64,000 nt of DNA from Luteimonas padinae (GTDB lineage Bacteria; Pseudomonadota; Gammaproteobacteria; Xanthomonadales; Xanthomonadaceae), in contig NZ_BMZT01000002.1 of the NCBI RefSeq assembly GCF_014652935.1, positions 310,001 to 374,000 on the forward strand. The letters run 5' to 3'. The notes under the pieces are model-generated. The model ran no database searches. It had not been told where the DNA came from and was given only the letters and a program-made list of their open reading frames with translations. Shown here piece after piece: positions 1-38,515 of this stretch; the first letter of the stretch is position 1, and each line of letters starts with the position of its first letter. A program made the position numbers and the translations under genes.

Positions 1-584
1 GCCCGTCCTGCCACGGCCGCGGCAAGACCTTCAGGACCCCGTGCCCGGCCTGCCGCGGCAACGGCCGCGTGGAGGAGGAGAAGGTCCTGCAGGTCAAGGT
101 GCCCGCGGGCGTCGATACCGGCGACCGCATCCGCCTGTCCGGCGAGGGCGAGGCCGGTCCGCCCGGCACCCAGCCCGGCGATCTTTACGTCGAAGTCCGT
201 GTGCGCCCGCACGCCATCTTCGAGCGCGACGGCGACGACCTGCACTGCGAGGTGCCGATCCGCTTCTCGCAGGCCGCGCTTGGCGATACCGTGCGCGTGC
301 CGACCCTCGGCGGCGAGGCCGAGATCCGCATTCCCGCCGAGACCCAGACCGGCAAGGTCTTCCGCCTGCGCGACAAGGGCGTGAAGTCGGTGCGCAGCCG
401 CGCGCCGGGAGATCTGTACTGCAAGGTCGTGGTGGAGACCCCGGTCAACCTGACCGCCGCGCAGCGCGAGCTGCTGGAGCAGTTCGAGGGCACCTTCGTC
501 GGCGAGGGCGCGCGCCGTCATTCACCGAAGTCGAGCACCTTCGTCGACGGCGTGAAAGGCTTCTGGGAGCGGATGACCTCCTGA
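1..584 (+). CDS. dnaJ: Chaperone protein DnaJ, C-terminal part (5' end outside window)
   Basis: Hsp40 co-chaperone that delivers unfolded clients to DnaK and stimulates its ATPase. The window opens inside the cysteine-rich zinc region: the last two CxxCxGxG repeats are visible as PSCHGRGK (its first Cys codon is cut by the edge) and CPACRGNGR. The two beta-rich client-binding domains follow, with the family block [20 protein letters not shown] at their start, then a short tail ending in TGA at 584. The J domain and Gly/Phe linker lie upstream of the window. dapB starts 45 bases downstream on the same strand, as in other Xanthomonadaceae. Confidence 0.95.
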
Positions 585-629
585 GGGCGCGTGCTTGTGG
601 CTGCGCGGCCGCCTCGCTAGCCTTCCCGG

Positions 630-1340
630 ATGGGTGATCCAGTCAGGTTCCTGATCCACGGTGCCAGCGGCCGCATGGGGCAGGCGCTGCTGCGCCTGTG
701 CGCCGGGGGCGCGGTGGACTGCAGCGTGGTGGCGGCGGTGTCGCGCAAGCCGGCGCAGCGGGTGGTCGATGGCGTGCCGCAGTTCGCGGCCAGCGAGCTT
801 GCGGGCGTGCCGCCCTTCGACGTCGCCATCGATTTCAGCCTGCCCGAGGGCTTCGATCCGCTGCTGGCCCTGTGCAGGCAGCGTGGCGCGGCCCTGGTGT
901 CGGGCACCACCGGGCTCTCGGATGCCCAGCGACAGGCCCTCGCCGAGGCCGCCGCCGATATCCCGGTGCTGTGGGCCGCCAACTTCAGCCTGGGCGTGGC
1001 GGTGCTCGAGGAGCTGGTCGAGCGCGCCGCGGCGGCGCTGGCCGGCTGGGACTGCGACATCGTCGAGACCCACCACGTGCACAAGCAGGACGCCCCGTCC
1101 GGCACCGCGCTGGCCCTCGGTGCCGCCGCGAAAAGGGGCGGCGGCATGCCGCGCTACGCCAGCCTGCGGGCCGGCGACATCGTCGGCGAACACCTAGTGC
1201 AGCTCACCGGCACGGGCGAGCGCGTGGAGCTGGTGCATCGCGCCACCAGCCGCGATGTCTTCGCGCGCGGGGCGCTGCACGCGGCCTCCCGCCTGCGTGG
1301 CCGCCCGCCGGGGGCCTGGCGCCTGCGCGACCTGCTCTGA
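630..1340 (+). CDS. dapB: 4-hydroxy-tetrahydrodipicolinate reductase
   Basis: NAD(P)H-dependent reduction of 4-hydroxy-tetrahydrodipicolinate to tetrahydrodipicolinate, in the cytosolic diaminopimelate/lysine pathway. The 236-residue product has the N-terminal dinucleotide motif GASGRMGQ (residues 11-18), the GTTGLS segment, and the catalytic and substrate-binding block THHVHKQDAPSGTA near residue 148, which carries the conserved His pair and Lys. It is somewhat shorter than the E. coli enzyme (273 residues), which from memory is usual in this family of bacteria. It lies between dnaJ and carA on the same strand. Confidence 0.95.
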   Translation: MGDPVRFLIHGASGRMGQALLRLCAGGAVDCSVVAAVSRKPAQRVVDGVPQFAASELAGVPPFDVAIDFSLPEGFDPLLALCRQRGAALVSGTTGLSDAQRQALAEAAADIPVLWAANFSLGVAVLEELVERAAAALAGWDCDIVETHHVHKQDAPSGTALALGAAAKRGGGMPRYASLRAGDIVGEHLVQLTGTGERVELVHRATSRDVFARGALHAASRLRGRPPGAWRLRDLL

Positions 1341-1475
1341 GGCGCCGGGCATTCACGTTCTCGCTGGCGCAGCGGAACCCGCGCCGGTATCATTCCCGCT
1401 CGCCTGATCCTCATGCCTCCGGGCCGGCCAATGCCGGGCCGGCGGTGTCTTGCAACCCCACGTAGGCGACCGCCA

Positions 1476-5841
<4,366 letters not shown>

Positions 5842-5845
<4 letters not shown>

Positions 5846-6315
5846 GACCACCGATCACGGCACAGGGAGCGCAGCGCCTGCGCGCGGAGCTGGAAGAACT
5901 GAAGAGCGTCCAGCGGCCTGCCGTCATCAACGCGATCGCCGAGGCGCGTGCCCACGGCGACCTGAAGGAAAACGCCGAGTACCACGCCGCGCGCGAGCAG
6001 CAGGGCTTCATCGAGGGCCGCATCAAGCAGCTCGAGAGCGAGCTGTCGCACGCGCAGGTGATCGACGTCGCCTCGCTCAACGTCGGCGACAAGGTCGTGT
6101 TCGGTGCCAACGTGCTGCTGGCCGACGAGGATACGGGCAAGGAGACCCGCTACCAGATCGTCGGCGACCTGGAAGCCGACATCAAACAGGGCCTGATCGC
6201 CATCTCCTCGCCGGTGGCGCGCGCGCTCATCGGCAAGCACGCCGGCGACGTCGTGACCATCGAGGCGCCCGGCGGCACCAGCGAGGTCGAGATCGTCGAG
6301 GTCAGCTACGGCTGA
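5842..6315 (+). CDS. greA: Transcription elongation factor GreA
   Basis: Rescues backtracked RNA polymerase by stimulating cleavage of the nascent RNA 3' end through the secondary channel. The 157-residue product has the N-terminal antiparallel coiled coil ([14 protein letters not shown]), the acidic tip region [15 protein letters not shown] around residue 41, and the C-terminal FKBP-like domain ending [13 protein letters not shown]. The ATG overlaps the carB stop in the 4-base form ATGA. This carB-greA-rpfE-recJ order matches the Xanthomonas rpf region. Confidence 0.96.
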
Positions 6316-6322
6316 TCCGGCG

Positions 6323-7267
6323 ATGCCGGACCTGGATTCCAGCGTGACCCTGCTGCTCCCGGCCGCCGCTCGGCTGGGGCGACAGCGCCTGTCCGCGGCC
6401 TGCGCGAAGCGCCTGGGGCGCGGCGACCCGGTGCCCGCCGGCGAGGCGGGCAGGCGCGCGCAGCTGCTGCGGCATTTCCCGCTGCGCGGCGAGGGCTGGC
6501 CGATCGCGGCGCTGTCGCGGCAGGCCGAGCTCGGCGATGCCGCCGGTGCGGCGTGGCTGCGCGCCGACCCGGTCTGGCTGCGCCCGGACATCAACGGCGT
6601 GCGCCTGCTGGCGCACGGCGATGCGCTGGGACTGGCGCGCGCCGACAGTGACGAGCTGCTGTCGGCACTGCGTCCGCTGTTCGGCGATGCCGGGTTCATG
6701 CTCGACGCCCCGCATCCGGCGCGCTGGTACCTGCGCCTGCCGGCGGAGACGCGCCTGCCGGTGTTTTCCGACCCCGGCGACGCGCTGGGCGAGGACATCT
6801 TCGAACACCTGGACATCAGCCCCGAGGCGCGGCGCTGGCGCACGCTGGCCAGCGAGGCGCAGGTGACGCTGCACCACCATCCCCTCAATGCGCGACGCGC
6901 GGCGCGCGGCCAGTCGCCGGTCAACGCGCTGTGGTTCTGGGGCGGCGGTCGCCTGCCGGCCGCTGCGTCCGGCCAAGGCACCACCGGCTTCAGCGGCGAC
7001 GACAGCGCGCGCGCCCTTGCCTCGGCCGGCGGCCGCGGGGCCGACCTGCCGGAGCGCTTCGCGGGCGAGCCGGGCGTGTACGACCTCGAGGGCACGCGCG
7101 ACCTCGCGTGGATCGAAAGCGGGTGGCTGGCACCGGCGCTGGATGCGCTGCGCGCGGGCGGCATCGCGGCGCTGCACCTGGACGATGCCGATGGCTGGCG
7201 CTTCTGCCTGCGTCGCGGGCAGGCGCTGCGCATCTGGCGCGCCCCGCTGGCCTGGCCGGCGCAGTGA
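6323..7267 (+). CDS. rpfE: RpfE-type regulatory protein of unknown biochemical function
   Basis: A 314-residue cytosolic protein with no signal peptide or membrane segment. Position between greA and recJ and overall character match the RpfE protein of the Xanthomonas rpf cluster, whose mutants have reduced extracellular enzyme and polysaccharide production. Relatives are sometimes annotated as phosphoglycerate-mutase-like. Visible landmarks are LRADPVWLRPDINGVRLLAH around residues 78-97 and PVNALWFWGGGRLP around residue 200, a tryptophan- and glycine-rich block typical of the family. No catalytic motif can be assigned from sequence. It starts 7 bases after greA, and its TGA overlaps the recJ GTG start, so coupling is likely. 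Confidence 0.8.
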   Translation: MPDLDSSVTLLLPAAARLGRQRLSAACAKRLGRGDPVPAGEAGRRAQLLRHFPLRGEGWPIAALSRQAELGDAAGAAWLRADPVWLRPDINGVRLLAHGDALGLARADSDELLSALRPLFGDAGFMLDAPHPARWYLRLPAETRLPVFSDPGDALGEDIFEHLDISPEARRWRTLASEAQVTLHHHPLNARRAARGQSPVNALWFWGGGRLPAAASGQGTTGFSGDDSARALASAGGRGADLPERFAGEPGVYDLEGTRDLAWIESGWLAPALDALRAGGIAALHLDDADGWRFCLRRGQALRIWRAPLAWPAQ

Positions 7268-9009
7268 CGCCCGTCCGCAGGATCCGGCGCCGCGCGCTTG
7301 CGGACGGCGCTGACGCCGCGGCGTCGTGGCCGGCCGACATCCCGCCGCTGCTGCGCCGCATCTATGCCGCCCGCGGCGCGCACGACGCCGATGCCGCGCG
7401 CCCGCGGCTGGCCGGCCTGCTGCCGCCCGACGGCCTGCTCGACCTCGATCGCGCCACGGCGCTGCTGGCCGCTGCGATCGAGGGTGGCCGCCGCATCCTG
7501 GTGGTGGGCGACTTCGATGCCGACGGCGCCACCGCCTGCGCCCTCGCAGTGCGCGGCCTGCGCATGCTCGGCGCGGGCGACGTGCTGCACGCCGTTCCCA
7601 ACCGCATGGTGCACGGCTATGGCCTGTCGACCGCGCTGGTGGCGGAACTGGCGCCGCTGCGCCCCGACCTGCTGGTGACCGTGGACCACGGCATCGCCTG
7701 CCATGCCGGTATCGAGGCCGCCCGGGCCCTGGGTTGGCAGGTGCTGGTCACCGACCACCACCTGCCCGGCGAGCGGCTGCCGGCGGCCGACGCCATCGTC
7801 AATCCGAACCGCGAGGGTGACGGCTTCGGCAGCAAGATGCTGGCCGGCGTGGGCGTCATGTTCTACGTGCTGCTGGCGCTCCGCGCGCGACTGCGCGACG
7901 AGGGCCGGCTGGAAGGCAAGGGGCCGGAGCTTGCGCAGCTGCTGGACCTGGTCGCCGTCGGCACCGTGGCCGACCTGGTGCCGCTGGACGCCAACAACCG
8001 CGCCCTGGTCGCGGCCGGCCTGCGCCGCCTGCGCGCGGGGCAGGGCTGCGCCGGGCTCAAGGCGCTGGTGGAGGTGTCCGGCCGCCGCGCGGAGCTGCTG
8101 TCCGCGGCGGACATCGGCTTCGCCGTCGGGCCGCGCCTGAACGCCGCCGGGCGCCTGGAGGACATGGCGCTCGGCATCGAATGCCTGCTGTGTGACGATC
8201 CGGCGCGGGCACGCGAACTGGCGGTCCAGCTTGACACGATCAACCGCGAACGCCGCAACGTGCAGCAGGCGATGCTGGACGAAGCCGAGCGCGCGCTCAC
8301 GACGCAGGCGCTCGACGCGATGGGGCAGGGCGATGGGAGCAAGGCCGCGGCCTGCGCCTTCGATCCGGGCTGGCATCCGGGCGTGGTCGGGCTGGTGGCG
8401 TCGAAGCTCAAGGAGCGGTTGCACCGGCCGGTGGTCGCGTTCGCGCCGTCCGAACCCGGCAGCGCCAGCCTGCGCGGCTCGGCACGCTCGATCCCGGGCT
8501 TCCACGTGCGCGATGCCCTGGCCGCGATCGATGCGCGTCATCCCGGGCTGATCGAACGCTTCGGCGGCCATGCCATGGCGGCCGGCCTGACGCTGGACGC
8601 CGCGCGCCTGGACGCCTTCCAGGCCGCGTTCCAGGCCCATGCCGCCGCGACGCTGGATGCCGCCGCGCTGCAGGCCACCCTCGACAGCGACGGCGCGCTG
8701 GCCCCGCACGAGTTCGACCGTTTCCACGCCGAGGCCCTGCGCGATGGCGGCCCCTGGGGCCAGGCCTTTCCCGAGCCGCTGTTCGACGGCGAGTTCGAGG
8801 TGGCCGACTGGCGCGTGGTGGGCGAGCGCCACCTGCGCATGACCCTGCGTGCCGAGGGCCTGAGGACGCCGCTGGCCGCGATCCAGTTCGGCGCCTGGCG
8901 CGGCGAACCTCCGCCGGGCCGCGCGCGCCTGGCCTACCGCCTGCAGCCGGATGACTACCGCGGCGGGGACGCGATCCAGCTGCTGGTCGAACACCTCGAG
9001 GCCTGCTGA
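7264..9009 (+). CDS. recJ: Single-stranded-DNA-specific 5'-3' exonuclease RecJ
   Basis: DHH-family exonuclease used in RecF-pathway recombination, base-excision and mismatch repair. The 581-residue protein starts at GTG 7264, overlapping the rpfE stop (GTGA); no other start fits the family N-terminus. Visible motifs are GDFDADGATA (residues 82-91), the second metal-binding motif VDHGIA, the family-naming TDHHLPG, and the C-terminal GGH motif in RFGGHAMAAGL. The last 41 residues are duplicated in a remnant 1.4 kb downstream at 10446-10568, which suggests that the present 3' end was acquired or duplicated. Confidence 0.95.
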   Translation: MTPVRRIRRRALADGADAAASWPADIPPLLRRIYAARGAHDADAARPRLAGLLPPDGLLDLDRATALLAAAIEGGRRILVVGDFDADGATACALAVRGLRMLGAGDVLHAVPNRMVHGYGLSTALVAELAPLRPDLLVTVDHGIACHAGIEAARALGWQVLVTDHHLPGERLPAADAIVNPNREGDGFGSKMLAGVGVMFYVLLALRARLRDEGRLEGKGPELAQLLDLVAVGTVADLVPLDANNRALVAAGLRRLRAGQGCAGLKALVEVSGRRAELLSAADIGFAVGPRLNAAGRLEDMALGIECLLCDDPARARELAVQLDTINRERRNVQQAMLDEAERALTTQALDAMGQGDGSKAAACAFDPGWHPGVVGLVASKLKERLHRPVVAFAPSEPGSASLRGSARSIPGFHVRDALAAIDARHPGLIERFGGHAMAAGLTLDAARLDAFQAAFQAHAAATLDAAALQATLDSDGALAPHEFDRFHAEALRDGGPWGQAFPEPLFDGEFEVADWRVVGERHLRMTLRAEGLRTPLAAIQFGAWRGEPPPGRARLAYRLQPDDYRGGDAIQLLVEHLEAC

Positions 9010-9108
9010 GCGCGGCCGCATTCAGGGGGCTATCGCGGACCGCGGAGCCGATTGATAATCGCGCACCGCCTGCGCGCCCGCGCCGGCCACCGATCGAGGG
9101 AATCGCAC

Positions 9109-10440
9109 ATGGCTCCACGCTCAACCGCGCTCACGCTGGCGATCCTCGCCATGTTCTCCGGCATGGCCACGGCGGCCACGCCGACGTCGCCGCTGGCCGT
9201 GGGCCAGCCCGTACGGGGCGAGATCACCAGCGCCGATGCCATGAACTGGCGCGACGGCAGCCGCAGCGAGCTGTACGCCATCAGCCTGGCCGCCGACGAA
9301 GGCGTGCGCTTCGAGGTCACGGGCCCGCTGGATGCGCAGCTGTCGCTGTTCCGCGACGGCGAACTGGTGCAGGCCTCGGCCGAGGGCCCCGACGACGCCA
9401 GCCTCGCCGTGCGCGCGCCGCGGGCCGGCCGCTACGTGCTGGCCGTGAGTGGCCGCGATGCTTCGGCCTATGGCCCGTACACGCTGAGCGCCACGGCCAT
9501 GCAGGTGTATGCCGGCGGCGAGCTCGCGCCGGGGGCGACGATCACCGACTGGGCGCAGTCGCCGCGCACCATCCCGCTGCGCATCACCGAGCCCGGCATG
9601 TACCGCATCCGCATGGCGTCCGACGACTTCGACACCGTGCTGTCGCTGGAGGGCGAGGGCGTGTCGCTGCGCAGCGACGATTCCGAAGGCAGCAACTCGA
9701 TGCTGACCACCCGGCTCGCGCCCGGGATCTACAGCCTGCGCGCCTCCGGCTTCCAGGACAGCATCGACGGCCAGTACGAACTCTCGGTGGCCAGCCATGC
9801 GCTGCCGGAAGGCGTCGAGCCGGCCGTCGACGGCGAACTCGTGCCGGGCCGCGAGGTCACCGCCCTCTACCAGGGCCAGCCGGTGACCTATCGCCTGCGA
9901 CTGGACGGCCGCCATCTGCTCGAACTCGACATGCGCAGCAACGAGATCGATCCCGGCCTGCAGCTGCTGGGCAACGGCGTGGAGCTCGAGGACGACGACT
10001 CCGGCGAGCGGCTCGACGCGCGCATCGCCACCGTGCTGGAGCCGGGCGAATACACCGTCCGCGCCTCGGCCTTCGATACCGGCGCCGGCGTGTTCACCCT
10101 GTCCGCGGCGCTGTCCGACGTTCCGGCGGATGCCGGCGGCGGCGCGCTGCGGGTCGGGCAGCCGCGCGACGCGCGACTGATCGGGGGGACCTCGGACCGC
10201 TACACCTTCAGCGTCCCGCGCGCCGGCGACCACGTGGTCGAGATGTCCGCCGGCGAGGGCCTCGACAGCCACCTGCGCCTGTTCCGCGATGGCGAGGAGA
10301 TCGCCGCGGACGACGACAGCGGTGGTGGCCTGGACGCGCGCATCGAACAGCACCTGCCGGCCGGGGACTACGTGCTCGAAGCATCGTCGCTGGGCGGCGG
10401 CGAGGGCGGTCGCTACCGCATCGGCGTGCGGCGGCGCTGA
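9109..10440 (+). CDS. Secreted protein made of four PPC-like repeats
   Basis: A 443-residue exported protein of unknown function. Residues 1-21 form a signal peptide (TALTLAILAMFSGMATAA) with likely cleavage after ATA. The rest reads as four tandem domains of about 100 residues, each opening with a G-x-P/E-L-x-x-G type segment (LAVGQPVRGEI, GGELAPGATI, DGELVPGREV, LRVGQPRDARL). Each carries a D-x-x-L-x-L-F/L strand, an acidic turn such as EDDDSGERLDARI or ADDDSGGGLDARI, and a closing G-x-Y-x-L strand. This is the pattern of bacterial pre-peptidase C-terminal (PPC) domains, here without any attached peptidase. ATG 9109 is preceded by GAGGG, and GATAAT at 9054-9059 is a candidate -10. It sits between intact recJ and a recJ 3'-end remnant. 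Confidence 0.75.
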   Translation: MAPRSTALTLAILAMFSGMATAATPTSPLAVGQPVRGEITSADAMNWRDGSRSELYAISLAADEGVRFEVTGPLDAQLSLFRDGELVQASAEGPDDASLAVRAPRAGRYVLAVSGRDASAYGPYTLSATAMQVYAGGELAPGATITDWAQSPRTIPLRITEPGMYRIRMASDDFDTVLSLEGEGVSLRSDDSEGSNSMLTTRLAPGIYSLRASGFQDSIDGQYELSVASHALPEGVEPAVDGELVPGREVTALYQGQPVTYRLRLDGRHLLELDMRSNEIDPGLQLLGNGVELEDDDSGERLDARIATVLEPGEYTVRASAFDTGAGVFTLSAALSDVPADAGGGALRVGQPRDARLIGGTSDRYTFSVPRAGDHVVEMSAGEGLDSHLRLFRDGEEIAADDDSGGGLDARIEQHLPAGDYVLEASSLGGGEGGRYRIGVRRR

Positions 10441-10445
10441 ACGGC

Positions 10446-10568
10446 CGGTTCGGCGGTTGGGGCGGCGAACCACCGCCCCCGCGCTTGCACGTCGCCTTCC
10501 GTCTCTCGCCCGACGACTACCGCGGCGGAGATGCCATCCAGCTCGTTGTCGAGTACCGGGAAGCCTGG
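10446..10568 (+). pseudogene. Displaced second copy of the recJ 3' end
   Basis: Translated in frame, these 123 bases give 41 residues that align without gaps to the last 41 residues of RecJ (positions 8884-9006). By hand alignment 28 of 41 are identical, including GEPPP and the long block PDDYRGGDAIQL. There is no start codon and no RecJ stop; the reading frame runs on past 10568 into unrelated sequence. It is therefore a remnant, not a gene. The similarity is protein-like (many third-position differences), so the copy is old or came from a diverged relative. The minus-strand acyltransferase gene ends inside it. Confidence 0.8.
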
Positions 10569-11740
10569 CGACTGGGTCTGGGCGGAAGTCCGAAGAAGGG
10601 GCGCAGCCAGCGGATGCGGGCGATGACCCGCATATGCAGGATGGCGCAGCCGGCAATGGTGCCCGTGCCCACCAGGAGTGGCTCGAGCCACGGCCCCAGC
10701 GCCAGCGGTGAGAGCGAGAACGCCAGGGGCACGATCAGGCTCTGGTGCAGCACATACCAGGGAAACACCGCCTCACGTGCGCTCGGCAGCCACTGGAATG
10801 GGCGGTCGAGCAGAGTGCGGCTCCAGCCGAAGATCGCCAGCAGCGCGGTCCAGGCGTAGGTCGCCCGGGCCATGCGCTCGATCATGGCCCAGTCCACGCG
10901 CAGCGCCCAGGCGGGGATGTCGCCGGGCGGAAGGTAGCGACCGGCTGCACGCAGGGACAGTTCGAGGCTGATGGCCAGCAGCGCCAGCGCCAGCGTCGTC
11001 CGGCGCATGGCGACCAGGCCGGTCCAGAAGCGCGCCTCGCCTGCGACCAGCCAGCCCGCGGCGAAGAAGAACAGGTATTTGGCGTGTGCGTACCAGTCGC
11101 CGACCAGCGCATGGGTCTCGGGCCAGCGCGGCATCAACCACCAGAGGCCGGCGAACAGCCAGGCCGAGGGGACCAGCACCCAGAAGATGCGGGGGCGGTC
11201 GAACAGCCAGTTTCGCAGCCGCGTTCCAGCGGCCGACTCCAGCACCGGCGTCAGCGCCAGCAGCAGCATGCTGTAGGTCCAGACATAGGCCAGGTACCAG
11301 AGATGGTTCCAGGTGATTCCATACTCGGCGCCGGACCAGCCGCCGCCCGCCCAGGGTCGCAGCTGCAGGTAGCGGGCCATGAACGCGCCGAAGTCCGGCT
11401 CGATCGCGCCGTTGCCGAGTGCTTCGCAGTAGGCCTGGACCGGGACGATCGCCAGCATCCCGAACAGAAGCGGAAGCAGCAGTCTCCAGCTGCGTGACAG
11501 CGCCAGTCGCCAGCCCGGACGTGCGGCCATGGCCAGGCCCAGGGCGATGCCGGAGATCATGAACAGCAGCGGCATCCGCCAGCGGTTGAGCGCGATCATC
11601 GGCCACTGCAGCCATTCCGCCTGGTAGGTGCTCTTGGCGTGGTAGCCCCATTCGGCGACGTAGACCATGCCGAGGTGATAGGCGATCAGCAGGGCGAAAG
11701 CGAAGACGCGGAGCGCGTCGATATCGTGGCGTCTGGGCAT
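10517..11740 (-). CDS. Membrane acyltransferase (acyltransferase 3 / OpgC-like family)
   Basis: A 407-residue integral membrane protein with about ten hydrophobic segments. The N-terminal block RRHDIDALRVFAFALLIAYH is the classic opening of the acyltransferase 3 family, which O-acylates surface carbohydrates or peptides; the true substrate cannot be inferred here. Later landmarks are WRMPLLFMISGIALGLAM (residues about 63-80) and LWYLAYVWTYSMLLL. The start at ATG 11740 is chosen because it places the family motif at the N-terminus. The final 15 or so codons, including STTSWMASPPR, are antisense to the recJ remnant, so the C-terminus was probably remodelled when this interval formed. It is divergent from rpfD. 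Confidence 0.8.
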   Translation of the reverse strand: MPRRHDIDALRVFAFALLIAYHLGMVYVAEWGYHAKSTYQAEWLQWPMIALNRWRMPLLFMISGIALGLAMAARPGWRLALSRSWRLLLPLLFGMLAIVPVQAYCEALGNGAIEPDFGAFMARYLQLRPWAGGGWSGAEYGITWNHLWYLAYVWTYSMLLLALTPVLESAAGTRLRNWLFDRPRIFWVLVPSAWLFAGLWWLMPRWPETHALVGDWYAHAKYLFFFAAGWLVAGEARFWTGLVAMRRTTLALALLAISLELSLRAAGRYLPPGDIPAWALRVDWAMIERMARATYAWTALLAIFGWSRTLLDRPFQWLPSAREAVFPWYVLHQSLIVPLAFSLSPLALGPWLEPLLVGTGTIAGCAILHMRVIARIRWLRPFFGLPPRPSRQASRYSTTSWMASPPR

Positions 11741-11878
11741 CGGTCTGGCCGGCGAAAGGACGGTCGAGCATTGATCGTGATGCCTGCTGGTGCCAGCGCA
11801 AAGTGGCACTGCGACGGGGTTTTGGGCCGAACCGCGGAACTGGGGGACGAGCCGTGGAGCGGGTATCGGCGGCGTCGA

Positions 11879-11884
11879 TACAAT
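11879..11884 (+). promoter_or_regulatory. Candidate -10 element of rpfD
   Basis: TACAAT matches the TATAAT consensus in five of six positions and lies only 6 bases before the rpfD ATG at 11891. If used, the mRNA would be essentially leaderless. No clear -35 element was seen. The gap 11741-11890 also holds the divergent promoter of the acyltransferase gene. Confidence 0.4.
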
Positions 11885-11890
11885 TTCGTC

Positions 11891-12811
11891 ATGCACCGAT
11901 CCGATGCCGGACCTGCCCGCGAGCCGCAGGACTTCTGGACCCGCCACCGGCCCTGGCAGCGCCCCTTCGAGATCGCGATCTGGGTGCTGGTGTTCGGCAT
12001 CGCCGCGGCGGCCAACGTCGCGGTGATCCTGATCGATGCCCATCGCGATGGCCTGCATGTGCAGGCCTGGCAGCCGGTGGTGGAGGAGGGCAGCAGTGCG
12101 CTGGCGTCGCTGCTGCTGGTGCCGTCGCTGCTGTGGCTGTGCGAGCGCTGGCCCCTGCACGCCGGAACCTGGGCCCGGCGCCTGCCGGTGTACGCGGCCG
12201 CCAGTCTTGTCTGGTCGTTGTTGCACGTGGCCGGCATGGTGCTGGTCCGCAACTTCGCCTAAGCCCTGGCGGGCGACAGCTACAGCTTCGACTGGTGGAT
12301 CGGCCTGCCTTACGAGTACATCAAGGACGTGCAGACTTTTGCCCTGATCGTGTCCGTCGCCCACGGCTACAGCTGGCTCTGGCGGCGGCTGCACGGGGAG
12401 GCGCACGTGCTCGGGCGCCCGGACCCCGGCGTTCCGGCTCCCGCCGACGAGCACGAAGAACGTCCGGACCGCTTCCTGGTGCGCAAACTGAGACGCGACT
12501 TCCTGGTCGCCGCGGCGGACATCGAGTGGCTCAAGGCGGCAGGCAACTACGTCAATCTGCACGTGGCCGGGCGCGACTATCCCCTGCGCAGCACCATGGC
12601 GGGCATCGAGGCGCGGCTGGATCCGGCCCGCTTCGTCCGCATCCATCGCAGCCATATCGTCAACCTCGAGCGGGTCGCCTCGATCGAGCCGCTCGACAGC
12701 GGCGACGCCCGCGTTCATCTGGTCGACGGCACCGAACTGCCGTGCAGCCGCAGTTACCGCGAGGCGCTGCGCGGGCGCGCCTTTCCGGGAGCGCCGCAGC
12801 GGACCGCCTGA
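11891..12811 (+). pseudogene. rpfD: LytTR-type regulator RpfD, interrupted by an in-frame stop
   Basis: The frame from ATG 11891 codes for a membrane-anchored LytTR transcription regulator, the RpfD protein of the Xanthomonas rpf cluster. The N-terminal half has four hydrophobic segments (for example PFEIAIWVLVFGIAAAANVA and YAAASLVWSLLHVAGMVLV). The C-terminal half is a LytTR DNA-binding domain with the family blocks IEWLKAAGNYVNLHV and FVRIHRSHIVNLERV. One TAA at 12260-12262 interrupts the same frame between RNFA and ALAGDSYSF. Both sides are intact, so a single substitution from a Tyr or Glu codon explains it. A separate GTG at 12328 could give a 160-residue soluble LytTR fragment without the membrane domain. 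Sequencing error is the main alternative. Confidence 0.8.
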
Positions 12812-12847
12812 GCGCGCACGGCGGCATCCCGGTCCCGGCGCCGGAAT

Positions 12848-12886: not shown

Positions 12887-14015
12887 ATGATGGAGCTCAA
12901 TCCCGTCCGCCAGCGCATCGCCGACCTCAAGGGTCGGCTGGATGCGCTGAGGGGGTTTCTTTGACTACGACACCAAGCGCGAGCGGCTCGAGGAAGTAGA
13001 GCGCGAGCTCGAGAACCCGGACGTCTGGAACGACCCCGAGCGCGCGCAGGCGCTGGGGCGCGAGCGCTCGACGCTCGACAAGACCGTCAACGGCATCCGC
13101 GACCTGACCGACGGCCTGGTGGGGGCGGCCGAGCTGCTGGACCTGGCCGAGGCCGAAGACGACGCGGAGACCGCGGAAGCGGTCGAGGCGGATGTCGAGC
13201 GCCTGTCGGCGCAGGTGGAGAAGCTCGAGTTCCAGCGCATGTTCTCCGGCAAGATGGACTCGACCAACGCCTTCCTGGACATCCAGGCCGGGGCCGGCGG
13301 CACCGAGGCCCAGGACTGGGCCGAGATCCTGCTGCGCATGTACCTGCGCTGGGCCGAGAGCCGCGGCTGGAAGACCGAGATCATGGAGGCCAGCGGCGGC
13401 GACGTTGCCGGCATCAAGTCGGCCACGGTGCGCGTGGAGGGCGACTTCGCCTACGGCTGGCTGAAGACCGAGACCGGCGTGCACCGCCTGGTGCGCAAGT
13501 CTCCGTTTGACTCCGACAACCGCCGCCACACCAGCTTCACCTCGGTGTTCGTGTCGCCGGAAGTCGACGATTCGATCGACATCCAGATCAACCCGGCCGA
13601 CCTCAAGACCGACGTCTACCGCTCGTCCGGCGCCGGCGGCCAGCACGTCAACAAGACCGAGTCGGCGGTGCGCATCACGCACGTGCCCACCGGCATCGTG
13701 GTCGCCTGCCAGACCGGCCGCAGCCAGCACTCCAACCGCGACACCGCGATGAAGATGCTGGCGGCCAAGCTGTACGAGCTCGAGATGCAGAAGCGCAACG
13801 CCGAGCGCGACGCGGTGGAAGCCACCAAGTCCGACATCGGCTGGGGCAGCCAGATCCGCAACTACGTGCTCGACCAGAGCCGCATCAAGGATCTGCGCAC
13901 CGGCATCGAGCGTTCGGACACGCAGAACGTGCTCGATGGCGACCTCGACGAGTTCATCGAGGCCAGCCTGAAGTCGGGGCTGGAAGTGGGCGCGAAGCGC
14001 ATCGACGCTGTTTGA
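12887..14015 (+). CDS. prfB: Peptide chain release factor 2 (programmed +1 frameshift)
   Basis: Recognises UGA and UAA and triggers peptide release. Translation begins at ATG 12887 and reads 25 codons to CTT at 12959-12961, where an in-frame TGA (12962-12964) follows. A +1 shift resumes at GAC 12963 and continues to 14015, for 375 residues in total. The slip site is preceded by the internal Shine-Dalgarno-like AGGGGG, as in E. coli. GGQ, the catalytic tripeptide, is at residues 250-252 ([10 protein letters not shown]), and the stop-recognition SPF motif is in [11 protein letters not shown]2 autoregulates its own level through this site. lysS follows after a 140-base gap containing REP units. 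Confidence 0.97.
12950..12965 (+). other. prfB programmed frameshift site
   Basis: AGG GGG TTT CTT TGA C: the purine-rich AGGGGG pairs with 16S rRNA three bases upstream of the slippery CTT, and the in-frame TGA followed by C is a poor terminator. This is the conserved RF2 autoregulatory element, not a mutation. Confidence 0.95.
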
Positions 14016-35568: not shown

Positions 35569-35659
35569 CGGCGCCGCGCCCTCGCCAGTATCCCGGCGCG
35601 GGCGTGACTGACCGGCCGGCGTTCGACCGATGGCACGGGCCGAAATGCTCGCGTGGGGA

Positions 35660-35690
35660 TTGCACTCTGCAACAATCCTTGTATAGTTGT
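35660..35690 (+). promoter_or_regulatory. Promoter and candidate operator of the ars operon
   Basis: A -35 TTGCAC (35660-35665) and -10 TATAGT (35682-35687) are 16 bases apart, so transcription would start at or next to the arsR ATG at 35695. A short inverted repeat ACAA-TCC-TTGT (35672-35682) lies in the spacer and touches the -10, where ArsR binding would block polymerase. Confidence 0.55.
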
Positions 35691-35694
35691 AATC

Positions 35695-35997
35695 ATGGAC
35701 GATGAATCCGCCGTCTCCGCGCTGTCCGCCCTCGCGCATGCCGACCGCCTGGCCGCCTTCCGCCTGCTGGTTCGCGCCGGCTTCGAGGGCGTGCCTTCGG
35801 GCGCGATCGCCGAGGCACTGTCGATTCCGGCGACGCGCATGAGCTTCCACCTGGCGACGCTCGAGCGCGCGGGCCTGCTGCGCTGCTGGCGCGATGGCAG
35901 GCACGTCCGCTACGCCGCCAGCTACGACGACATGCGCGAGCTGCTGGCCTTCCTCACCGCAGACTGCTGCAACGGCAATCCCGAAATCTGTGCATGA
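35695..35997 (+). CDS. arsR: ArsR-family arsenic-responsive repressor
   Basis: A 100-residue winged-helix repressor, first gene of the arsenic operon. The recognition helix region is SIPATRMSFHLATLERAGLL (residues 43-62). The metalloid site appears to be C-terminal: Cys91, Cys92 and Cys99 in DCCNGNPEICA, like the C-terminal As(III) site described for Acidithiobacillus-type ArsR rather than the alpha-3 site of plasmid R773. ATG 35695 is chosen because an upstream ATG at 35653 reads through the promoter. Confidence 0.88.
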   Translation: MDDESAVSALSALAHADRLAAFRLLVRAGFEGVPSGAIAEALSIPATRMSFHLATLERAGLLRCWRDGRHVRYAASYDDMRELLAFLTADCCNGNPEICA

Positions 35998-36032
35998 GCA
36001 TTTCCGAACAGCTCCTGGCCTGAGGCACCGGC

Positions 36033-36446
36033 ATGGCGATCACGATCTACCACAATCCCGCCTGCGGCACGTCCCGCAACACCCTCGAAATGCTGCGCCA
36101 GTCCGGCGAGCACCCCCAGGTCATCGAATACCTGCGGACACCGCCCTCGCGCGAACGGTTGCTGGAGTTGATCGCCGCGATGGGCATCTCGCCGCGCGAA
36201 GTCCTGCGCGAGAAAGGCACGCCGTATGCGGAACTCGGGCTGGATGACCCAGCGCTCCTCGACGAGGACCTGGTAGACGCGATGCTGGCGCATCCGATCC
36301 TGATCAACCGCCCGATTGTGGTCACCCGTCGCGGTGCGGCACTCTGCCGGCCGCCCGAAAAGGTGCTTGCGCTGCTCGACCATCCGGTGGCGTCGTTCAC
36401 GAAGGAAGACGGCGAAGTGGTCACTGCAGGCGGGACGTTGACGTGA
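36033..36446 (+). CDS. arsC: Arsenate reductase, glutaredoxin-dependent
   Basis: Reduces arsenate to arsenite for export. The 137-residue thioredoxin-fold protein has the active-site Cys in [16 protein letters not shown] (Cys11) and the oxyanion-binding arginine in [17 protein letters not shown]. These features are those of the E. coli/R773-type ArsC. Its stop overlaps the arsH GTG start (GTGA). Confidence 0.95.
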
Positions 36447-37168
36447 GCGATCCGGTTCTGATGGATCTGCCGAACATCGACCCCGCGCAGCTCGCCCCGA
36501 TCGACGTGGACGCGCTGGCCGCCCCGGGCGATCCGGTGCACCCGCCATGCATCCTGATTCTTTACGGTTCGCTGCGCGAGCGTTCCTATTCGAGGCTGCT
36601 GGCCGAGGAAGCCGGCCGGCTCCTGCGCTGGTACGGCTGCGAGGTGCGAATCTTCGATCCACGCGATCTGCCGCTGCCCGACGGCGCGCCTGCGGACCAT
36701 CCGAAGGTGGCCGAGCTGCGGGAACTCGCCGACTGGTCGGAGGGCATGGTGTGGATCAGCCCGGAGCGCCACGGCGCCATGACCGGAATCATGAAGGCGC
36801 AAATCGACTGGATTCCGCTGTCCCAGGGCGCGAAGCGGCCGACGCAGGGCAAGACGCTCGCGGTGATGCAAGTGTCCGGAGGCTCGCAGAGCTTCAACGC
36901 CGTCAACCAGCTGCGCGTGCTCGGCCGCTGGATGCGCATGGTGACGATCCCGAACCAGTCGTCGGTTGCGAAGGCCTACCAGGAATTCGACGAGGCCGGC
37001 CGCATGAAGCCGTCGGCCTTCTACCAGCGCGTCGTCGACGTGTGCGAGGAGCTGGTCAAGTTCACCTGGCTCGTGCGCGGCCGATCGGCCTACCTGACCG
37101 ACCGCTATTCCGAGCGGGTCGAGACCGCCGAAGAGTTGTCCAGCCGCGTCGACCAGCGCGCCATCTGA
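36443..37168 (+). CDS. arsH: ArsH, NADPH-dependent FMN reductase / organoarsenical oxidase
   Basis: A 241-residue flavodoxin-fold protein. ArsH family members oxidise trivalent organoarsenicals and protect from oxidative stress. The flavin loop is [15 protein letters not shown] (residues about 39-53), and the conserved [19 protein letters not shown] and [20 protein letters not shown] blocks are present. The N-terminal extension of about 35 residues is typical. Start GTG 36443 overlaps arsC. Confidence 0.95.
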
Positions 37169-37186
37169 CCTCGGCGGAAGCGCACC

Positions 37187-38491
37187 ATGCTTGCCCTCGC
37201 GATCTTCATTGTGACCCTGGTGTTCGTCGTCTGGCAGCCGCGCGGGCTCGGCATTGGCTGGTCGGCGCTCGCCGGCGCCGGCGTCGCCCTGGCAACGGGC
37301 GTCGTAGGCTGGGACGACGTCGGTACGGTATGGGGCATCGTCTGGGATGCCACGTTCACCTTCGTTGCGCTGATCGTGATCTCCGTGATTCTGGACGAGG
37401 CCGGGTTCTTCGCCTGGGCGGCCCTGCACGTGGCGCGCTGGGGCGGCGGCAACGGCCGCAAGCTGTTTCCGCTGGTCGTTCTGCTCGGGGCCGCGATCGC
37501 CGCCATGTTCGCCAACGACGGTGCGGCCCTGCTGCTGACGCCGATCGTGCTGGCGATCCTGCTGCGACTGGATTTCCCGGCGGCTGGCGCGATGGCCTTC
37601 ACCGTCACCTGTGGCTTCATCGCCGATACGGCCAGCCTGCCGCTCGTGGTGTCGAACCTGGTCAACATCGTCACCGCCAATTACTTCGGCATTCCCTTCG
37701 GCAGGTATGCCTCCGTCATGGTGCCGGTGAACCTGGTTTCGGTCGCCGTGACGCTGCTGGTGCTCTGGCTCTGGTTCCGTCGTGACATTCCTGCTCGATA
37801 TCGCCTCGAGGCGCTGGAAGAGCCGCGGCAGGCGATCCGGGACCCGGCGATCTTCCGGTCCGCGTTTCCGCTGCTCGCCCTGCTGTTGATCGCGTACTTC
37901 GTGACCGCTCCGTTCGGCGTTCCGATCGCGCTGGTCACGAGCGTCGCAGCGGTACTCATGATGGCGATTGCCGGCCGCTGGGGCAGCGGCGGCCGCGGCG
38001 CGGGCATCGGCCTGACGAAGGTCCTGCTCGGCGCGCCCTGGCAGATCGTGCTGTTCTCGCTGGGCATGTACCTGGTCGTCTACGGCCTCGGGAATGCCTG
38101 GCTCACCAGCGCGTCCACGGCCGTCCTGACCTGGCTTGCCGCGCAGGGCTCGCTCGTGGCCACGATCGGGACCGGCGTTGCCGTCGCCATCCTCGCCTCG
38201 GTGATGAACAACATGCCGGCGACGCTCGTCGGTGCTCTGGCCATCGACGCGGCCGAAGTGCCGGCGCTGACCAGGGAATTGATGATCTACGCCAACGTCG
38301 TCGGCAATGACCTCGGCCCGAAGCTCACGCCGATCGGCTCGCTCGCGACGCTGCTGTGGCTCCACGTGCTGGCGGGCAAGGGCCAGCGGATCACGTGGGG
38401 CCAGTACATGAAGGTCGGGCTGATCCTGACTCCGCCCGTACTGCTGGCGACCCTGATCGCGCTCTGGATCTGGCTGCCGCTTGCACAGTGA
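37187..38491 (+). CDS. arsB: Arsenite efflux pump ArsB
   Basis: A 434-residue inner-membrane arsenite/proton antiporter with about twelve membrane segments. Recognised by family blocks MFANDGAALLLTPIVLAILL (residues 106-125), FIADTASLPLVVSNLVNIV and SVMNNMPATLVGALAI. It follows arsH by 18 bases and ends the operon at a strong terminator. ArsB is of the classical R773 type, not Acr3. Confidence 0.94.
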   Translation: MLALAIFIVTLVFVVWQPRGLGIGWSALAGAGVALATGVVGWDDVGTVWGIVWDATFTFVALIVISVILDEAGFFAWAALHVARWGGGNGRKLFPLVVLLGAAIAAMFANDGAALLLTPIVLAILLRLDFPAAGAMAFTVTCGFIADTASLPLVVSNLVNIVTANYFGIPFGRYASVMVPVNLVSVAVTLLVLWLWFRRDIPARYRLEALEEPRQAIRDPAIFRSAFPLLALLLIAYFVTAPFGVPIALVTSVAAVLMMAIAGRWGSGGRGAGIGLTKVLLGAPWQIVLFSLGMYLVVYGLGNAWLTSASTAVLTWLAAQGSLVATIGTGVAVAILASVMNNMPATLVGALAIDAAEVPALTRELMIYANVVGNDLGPKLTPIGSLATLLWLHVLAGKGQRITWGQYMKVGLILTPPVLLATLIALWIWLPLAQ

Positions 38492-38515
38492 GCGAAGCCG
38501 GCAGGCCTACGAATG

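What the first reader, a model, noticed from the sequence alone, without database searches (positions are those of the whole stretch)
12260..12262. rpfD is interrupted by one in-frame stop codon
The frame from ATG 11891 to TGA 12811 encodes both halves of an RpfD-type protein (membrane region, then LytTR domain) but contains TAA between RNFA and ALAGDSYSF. Both flanks keep coding character and no frameshift is needed. Tyr or Glu codons are one base away. Either the strain has lost full-length RpfD inside an otherwise complete DSF cluster, or a soluble LytTR fragment from GTG 12328 now acts without its membrane input.
Basis: partly seen in the sequence, partly recalled or inferred. Interest (0 to 1): 0.75.

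Follow-up and report, generated by a model that had tools for sequence, protein, structure and literature searches.

The report
Stop-broken membrane regulator beside an acyltransferase
A bacterium related to Lysobacter carries a membrane-bound gene regulator cut in two by one stop signal; the gene belongs to a two-gene set, regulator plus acyltransferase, that its relatives have or lack together, so the break looks like ordinary gene decay, while the conserved pairing itself is the more useful lead.

Summary
The in-frame TAA at 12260-12262 is real in this assembly. It falls on a position that is the same residue in 67 of 67 relatives examined, none with a boundary there. Most likely full-length RpfD is lost, recently: one stop, frame kept, no excess of amino-acid changes. 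This does not imply a broken DSF system: all 14 rpfD-less genus loci inspected still match rpfB, F, C and G, and a published comparison says rpfD is not implicated in DSF signalling (PMC2585010). rpfD is half of a divergent pair with an Acyl_transf_3 gene: 65 of 66 relatives with flank; both found in the same 37 and missing from the same 15 of 52 genus genomes. Between them lie LytTR-like direct repeats 20-21 bp apart in 62 of 67 sequences, kept here. The block 10444-12834 is absent from the nearest genome and has a foreign phylogeny. GTG 12407 is a better, unproven restart. Sequencing error is not excluded.

The parts
10444..12834 (.). block absent from the nearest genome G008, with collinear DNA on both sides
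   Evidence: blastn of the window against 71.5 kb of G008: collinear 1-10443 and 12835-35568
10449..10567 (+). scrap of a second recJ 3' end at the left edge of the block
   Evidence: 75% identical to the window's own recJ end, up to 81% to recJ ends of related genomes
10517..11740 (-). divergent acyltransferase gene, 407 aa, open frame
   Evidence: Pfam Acyl_transf_3, 76.7 bits, cut-off 31; weak MdoC likeness, 39 bits, cut-off 338
11824..11837 (+). first direct repeat of the likely LytTR operator
   Evidence: GGGCCGAACCGCGG, motif learnt over the intergenic sequences
11844..11857 (+). second direct repeat, 20 bp after the start of the first
   Evidence: GGGACGAGCCGTGG; only such pair over threshold in the 64-kb window
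11879..11884 (+). likely -10 element of rpfD, 6 bp before the ATG (would mean a leaderless mRNA)
   Evidence: TACAAT; TA[GC]AAT begins 12 bp before the start in 48 of 67 sequences, within 40 bp in 57 of 67
11891..12259 (+). rpfD piece before the stop: three hydrophobic segments (about 11978-12034, 12086-12142, 12188-12244)
   Evidence: match in 37 of 52 genus genomes, own included
12260..12262 (+). in-frame TAA
   Evidence: column invariant in 67 of 67 relatives
12263..12808 (+). rpfD piece after the stop: a weak hydrophobic stretch (about 12329-12379) and the LytTR domain (12500-12772)
12329..12331 (+).
   Evidence: 3 of 6 match to AGGAGG; opens the weak hydrophobic stretch
12407..12409 (+). 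GTG, best in-frame restart candidate, would give 134 aa of linker plus LytTR
   Evidence: GGGGAGG at 12395-12401, 5 of 6 match; 11 of 67 relatives have as good by chance in the stretch

Best explanation
The window carries a recently inactivated copy of rpfD, which in relatives encodes a protein with three or four membrane segments and a C-terminal LytTR DNA-binding domain. The intact protein most likely works as a one-component regulator: its membrane part senses an unknown envelope cue and its LytTR domain binds the two direct repeats, 20-21 bp apart, between rpfD and the divergent acyltransferase gene, controlling that enzyme and itself. The acyltransferase-rpfD pair entered this lineage as a block at the rpf locus, between a PPC-domain gene and prfB. 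Here the stop ends translation after the third hydrophobic segment, so the regulator is lost and the acyltransferase runs without its normal control, on the way to the joint loss seen in related genomes. Shown: the stop, the pairing, the repeats, joint presence and absence, the conflict of trees. Inferred: arrival by transfer, regulation by RpfD, sensing, the direction of control, the youth of the stop.
For: One stop in the frame, column invariant in 67 of 67 relatives. Acyltransferase divergent from rpfD in 65 of 66 relatives with flank, among them Pleionea, of the order Oceanospirillales. Direct repeats at 20-21 bp in 62 of 67 sequences, 3.6% in shuffles of two-base blocks, against canonical LytTR sites of 9-bp repeats 10-13 bp apart (PMC11347149, passages). 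No such pair in 14 rpfD-less loci, one in each of 6 loci with rpfD. Block absent from G008. Marker trees join this genome with G008 (100/99; 99/96 with lysS and rpfG alone), while the rpfD C piece joins G011 and G054 (99/83) and the acyltransferase does too; the AU test rejects this rpfD with that of G039 (p 0.0016) and of G039 and G015 (p 0.0005). Presence of the pair changes at least 6 times on the tree of 20 genomes. G048 keeps only a 26-residue LytTR remnant next to prfB.
Against: Changes special to this copy are no richer in amino-acid changes than those of its two nearest kin (Fisher p 0.42 before the stop, 0.74 after it), so decay is not visible apart from the stop; that fits a very young stop, an error, or a product still in use. 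The operator is intact here. No binding or expression data exist. The acyltransferase could be controlled by something else. The AU p for this rpfD with that of G015 alone is only 0.043. The recJ scrap at the edge is closer to clade members than to G011 or G054.
Confidence: 0.62

Rival explanations
1. The stop is an error of sequencing, assembly or culture, and the gene in nature is whole.
For: Single stop at an invariant column, no sign of relaxed selection, operator and promoter kept, only one genome of the species at hand.
Against: Genome listed as 100% complete with 0.47 contamination in 35 contigs. Of 45 non-overlapping frames of G008 compared with the window, five showed an inner stop there: two of these lie over an intact ORF in another frame, three I judged spurious from identity and composition alone. 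So I recognised no second broken gene among those shared with G008 in the 64 kb; genes not in G008 were not tested. The gene is one this genus often lacks.
Confidence: 0.22
2. A shortened LytTR protein restarted inside the gene, best at GTG 12407, still binds the operator and acts without membrane input.
For: GGGGAGG five bases before GTG 12407, LytTR domain complete after it, operator kept. Precedent: an engineered LytTR-only piece of the membrane regulator CoxC still repressed its promoter and no longer answered CO (PMC11347149, passages).
Against: 11 of 67 intact relatives have an equally good chance start in the stretch, and only 11 of 67 have any start codon at that column; restart some 145 bases after a stop is usually weak (general knowledge); selection on the C piece not shown.
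Confidence: 0.12
3. The two pieces are made as separate proteins that work together.
For: Both frames open; G240, in another genus, is also split near the same point, by a shift of frame.
Against: No start with a fair ribosome-binding site close after the stop; none of 67 relatives is split there; the 8 genus-mates of G240 with rpfD have open frames of 301 aa or more.
Confidence: 0.03

Closest known systems
RpfD of the Xanthomonas rpf cluster
   Same: Place beside prfB-lysS-rpfG-rpfC-rpfF-rpfB; hydrophobic segments then LytTR. PMC9864630 puts rpfDEI in the right-hand section of the cluster (one passage).
   Different: Here broken by one stop and in a block of foreign descent. No named Xanthomonas RpfD was compared directly; the name rests on place, domain and recall.
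CoxC, a membrane MHYT-LytTR one-component regulator (PMC11347149)
   Same: Membrane part fused to a C-terminal LytTR domain; direct-repeat operator (passages).
   Different: No MHYT domain found; three or four hydrophobic segments against seven; two repeats against three; partner gene is an acyltransferase.
LytTR Regulatory Systems of Streptococcus mutans (PMC6193735)
   Same: Direct repeats mostly 12 bp apart upstream of the regulator's own promoter (passages).
   Different: There a LytTR regulator is held by a separate membrane inhibitor; here membrane part and LytTR are one chain in relatives and the partner gene is an acyltransferase transcribed away from it.
MdoC (OpgC) glucan acyltransferase and other Acyl_transf_3 enzymes
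   Same: Acyl_transf_3 domain, faint MdoC likeness.
   Different: Far under the MdoC cut-off (39 of 338 bits); substrate unknown.

Membership tests
LytTR family (PF04397) | LytTR domain over the curated cut-off | tested here: met
   86.6 bits against 22.6 in the C piece
LytTR family (PF04397) | operator of two direct repeats about 19-22 bp from start to start | tested here: met
   20-21 bp in 62 of 67 intergenic sequences, shuffles 3.6%; binding itself untested
RpfD (rpf cluster) | gene beside prfB at the rpf locus | tested here: met
   window order rpfE-recJ-PPC gene-acyltransferase-rpfD-prfB-lysS-rpfG-rpfC-rpfF-rpfB (gene names by recall)
RpfD (rpf cluster) | one unbroken chain of membrane part and LytTR | tested here: not met
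   TAA at 12260-12262; unbroken there in the 67 relatives examined
RpfD (rpf cluster) | likeness to a named Xanthomonas RpfD sequence | not tested
   no named Xanthomonas record was among the fetched loci
DSF signalling core | kept wherever rpfB, F, C and G are kept | tested here: not met
   14 of 14 inspected rpfD-less loci match rpfB/F/C/G; PMC2585010 section 9
CoxC-type MHYT-LytTR regulator | MHYT domain | tested here: not met
   no MHYT hit in the window pieces or two intact relatives
LytTR Regulatory System | separate membrane inhibitor gene beside a LytTR regulator | tested here: not met
   both parts in one chain in relatives; neighbour is Acyl_transf_3
pseudogene by nonsense change | inner stop where relatives have a sense codon | tested here: met
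   67 of 67 relatives
pseudogene by nonsense change | relaxed selection after the lesion | tested here: inconclusive
   no excess of amino-acid changes, p 0.42 and 0.74

The most novel reading that the evidence does not exclude
The acyltransferase-RpfD pair is an undescribed mobile regulatory module: a membrane one-component LytTR regulator that reads the state of the envelope and sets its own divergent acyltransferase through conserved direct repeats. In this strain the stop has turned the regulator into a signal-blind LytTR protein made from GTG 12407, which locks the acyltransferase in one state while the membrane sensor is discarded.
Probability: 0.1. Interest if true: 0.6.

Novelty: new member of a known kind. 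Interest (0 to 1): 0.4.

Why it matters
By itself one stop in a gene that the genus often does without is ordinary decay. What is useful is the context it exposed: rpfD, listed among rpf genes with only a minor regulatory role (PMC2585010), goes with a divergent acyltransferase in nearly every relative examined, comes and goes with it, and has a conserved LytTR-like operator between the two. That turns an unclear gene into a direct test: does RpfD bind those repeats and set the acyltransferase? Searches of the held papers gave none with rpfD and LytTR, none with LytTR, acyltransferase and Xanthomonas, and ten with LytTR, acyltransferase and regulator, none about such a pair by title and start of abstract. 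Of five papers with rpfD, Xanthomonas and rpfE I opened three and not PMC12294570 and PMC3667120; the text held for PMC2448391 was too short to show rpfD. Of 121 papers with the word rpfD, 40 were listed, mostly on mycobacteria or unrelated. Most subscription papers are not held.

Tried and rejected
Natural gene boundary: rejected, 0 of 67 relatives. Reassigned TAA: unlikely, TAA ends rpfB and the gene read as infA; the window holds no tRNA at all, and the whole genome was not scanned for a suppressor tRNA. Restart at GTG 12329: unlikely. Counting changes by lineage gave no sign of relaxed selection either way. Foreign base composition as a sign of transfer: third-position GC of the block (0.88-0.90) is a little under that of six neighbouring or nearby genes read (0.92-0.96), not decisive. 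The recJ scrap at the left edge was expected to match G054 or G011, the nearest kin of the block; it matched clade members better (up to 81% against 68-72%, some 120 bp or less), so the donor is not settled. The tool kept the best 80 of 180 loci; of the family matches only the 29 loci fetched besides our own entered the alignment; the second copies in G013 and G025 entered for G013 only.

Full report
What is there. The frame from ATG 11891 to TGA 12811 contains one TAA at 12260-12262. The piece before it has three strong hydrophobic segments; the piece after it has a weaker hydrophobic stretch (mean 1.15 over 17 residues, relatives' median 1.17) and a LytTR domain. The nearest named records are Lysobacter sp. 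GX 14042, a Lysobacteraceae bacterium and Luteimonas sp. 8-5, at 68-71% identity in the C piece; the species itself is unnamed.

Is it one gene? I compared the two pieces separately with 67 relatives: 37 copies from 36 genomes of the same genus, 29 from other genera of the family, and Pleionea of the order Oceanospirillales. All 67 are filled at the stop column, with the same residue and no stop. One family genome outside that set, G240, has its rpfD split by a shift of frame near the same point, while its 8 genus-mates with the gene have open frames. So I see no natural boundary, and the stop strikes an invariant position.

How often is the gene missing? The N piece is found in 37 of 52 genus genomes, this one included. 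For the 15 without it I fetched the prfB region of 14 and left out G034, whose prfB match was a fragment. All 14 have tblastn matches over most of rpfG, rpfC, rpfF and rpfB; I did not test that each frame is open, and in G005 rpfB and acnA match in two frames. One, G048, keeps a 26-residue LytTR remnant beside prfB. On the marker tree the three nearest genomes, G008, G004 and G040, have no rpfD; the fourth, G015, has one of another lineage. [quoted passage not shown] Loss of RpfD is therefore no surprise and does not imply a broken DSF system.

A foreign block. The window and G008 are collinear at about 92-94% identity except for two blocks present only here: 10444-12834, with the acyltransferase and rpfD, and 35569-38514. 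Marker genes join this genome with G008 (100/99 with four genes; 99/96 with lysS and rpfG alone). The rpfD C piece joins G011 and G054 (99/83); the acyltransferase joins G011 (97/96) and then G054 (100/99) on a tree of 7. Holding this rpfD together with that of its species kin G039, or of G039 and G015, is rejected (p 0.0016 and 0.0005); with G015 alone it is borderline (p 0.043). A scrap of a recJ 3' end sits at the left edge and overlaps the tail of the acyltransferase, as whole recJ does in G043 and G054. I read this as arrival of the pair by recombination from a genome where recJ and the acyltransferase converge; the donor is not identified, and gain before the split from G008 followed by loss in G008 is not excluded.

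A two-gene module. Of 66 relatives with enough flank, 65 have an Acyl_transf_3-type gene divergent from rpfD, mostly some 150 bp away; the exception is G274, and G126 was cut by a contig end. On a tree of 20 of the genomes presence changes at least six times, so the match is not one event inherited by all, although related genomes are not independent.

An operator. A nine-base word, one mismatch allowed, is found in 56 of 66 intergenic sequences, against at most 33 in three shuffles. It grew into a 14-base motif whose two best places lie 20-21 bp apart in 62 of 67 sequences, against 3.6% of sequences shuffled in two-base blocks. The motif was learnt on the same sequences, but the spacing was not part of the learning. 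TA[GC]AAT begins 12 bp before the rpfD start in 48 of 67, which would make the messenger leaderless. Over the threshold used, the window has exactly one such repeat pair, at 11824; 14 rpfD-less loci have none and 6 loci with rpfD have one each. Canonical LytTR sites are 9-bp direct repeats 10-13 bp apart (PMC11347149, passages), and LytTR systems of Streptococcus mutans have repeats mostly 12 bp apart upstream of their own promoters (PMC6193735, passages). Both repeats are present here.

How it most likely works. Intact RpfD would sit in the membrane, sense an unknown envelope cue, and through the repeats set the divergent acyltransferase and itself. Here the stop removes the LytTR domain from the membrane part, and the acyltransferase runs without that control. 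Control by RpfD is inferred from pairing and operator; nothing here shows binding.

Age and product. Counting changes special to each of three kin, this copy shows 27 amino-acid to 11 silent changes before the stop and 30 to 31 after it, not significantly different from G054 and G011 together (p 0.42 and 0.74). Its end branch in the C-piece tree is 0.24, between G054 at 0.16 and G011 at 0.38. So the stop is young, or an error, or the second piece is still used. Of in-frame restarts, 12329 is poor and 12407 fair, but 11 of 67 intact relatives have an equally good one for no reason. A precedent for a signal-blind LytTR piece is the engineered truncation of CoxC (PMC11347149, passages).

Verdict. 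Observation right; interpretation half right. It is most likely a recently broken regulator in a module that this clade gains and loses, with sequencing error as the chief rival. The pairing with the acyltransferase and its operator is the finding worth following.

Noticed in passing
window 35569-38514: Second block absent from G008. Its ORFs at 36033-36446, 36443-37168 and 37187-38491 look by eye like an arsenate reductase, an ArsH-type protein and an arsenite or anion transporter; no family search was made.
   Followed up: partly
window 12959-12965: prfB carries the well-known programmed +1 shift signal (CTTTGAC) of release factor 2 genes; recognised from recall.
   Followed up: no
window 10449-10567: Scrap of a second recJ 3' end between the PPC-domain gene and the acyltransferase, 75% like the window's own recJ and up to 81% like recJ of related genomes.
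   Followed up: partly
L228 1528-2410: rpfD of genome G240 is split into two overlapping frames by a shift of frame near the same point as the stop here.
   Followed up: partly
L207 12542-12619: Genome G048 keeps only 26 residues of the LytTR end of rpfD beside prfB, a nearly erased copy.
   Followed up: partly
L222: Genome G015 has shifts of frame in recJ, prfB and the acyltransferase, which looks like an error-prone assembly.
   Followed up: no
L210 3-5004: In genome G005 acnA and rpfB match in two frames each, either broken or wrongly assembled.
   Followed up: no
L227 5996-8491: The only other LytTR match of this genome lies in a gene that looks like a LytR/AlgR-type response regulator.
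   Followed up: no
window 10517-12718: On the minus strand one open frame of 733 codons runs through the acyltransferase and back across most of rpfD; probably a by-product of GC-rich coding.
   Followed up: no
L057 2257-3105: A Marinicaulis MAG encodes a distant protein that aligns along the whole length, 24% identical to the Lysobacter copy.
   Followed up: no
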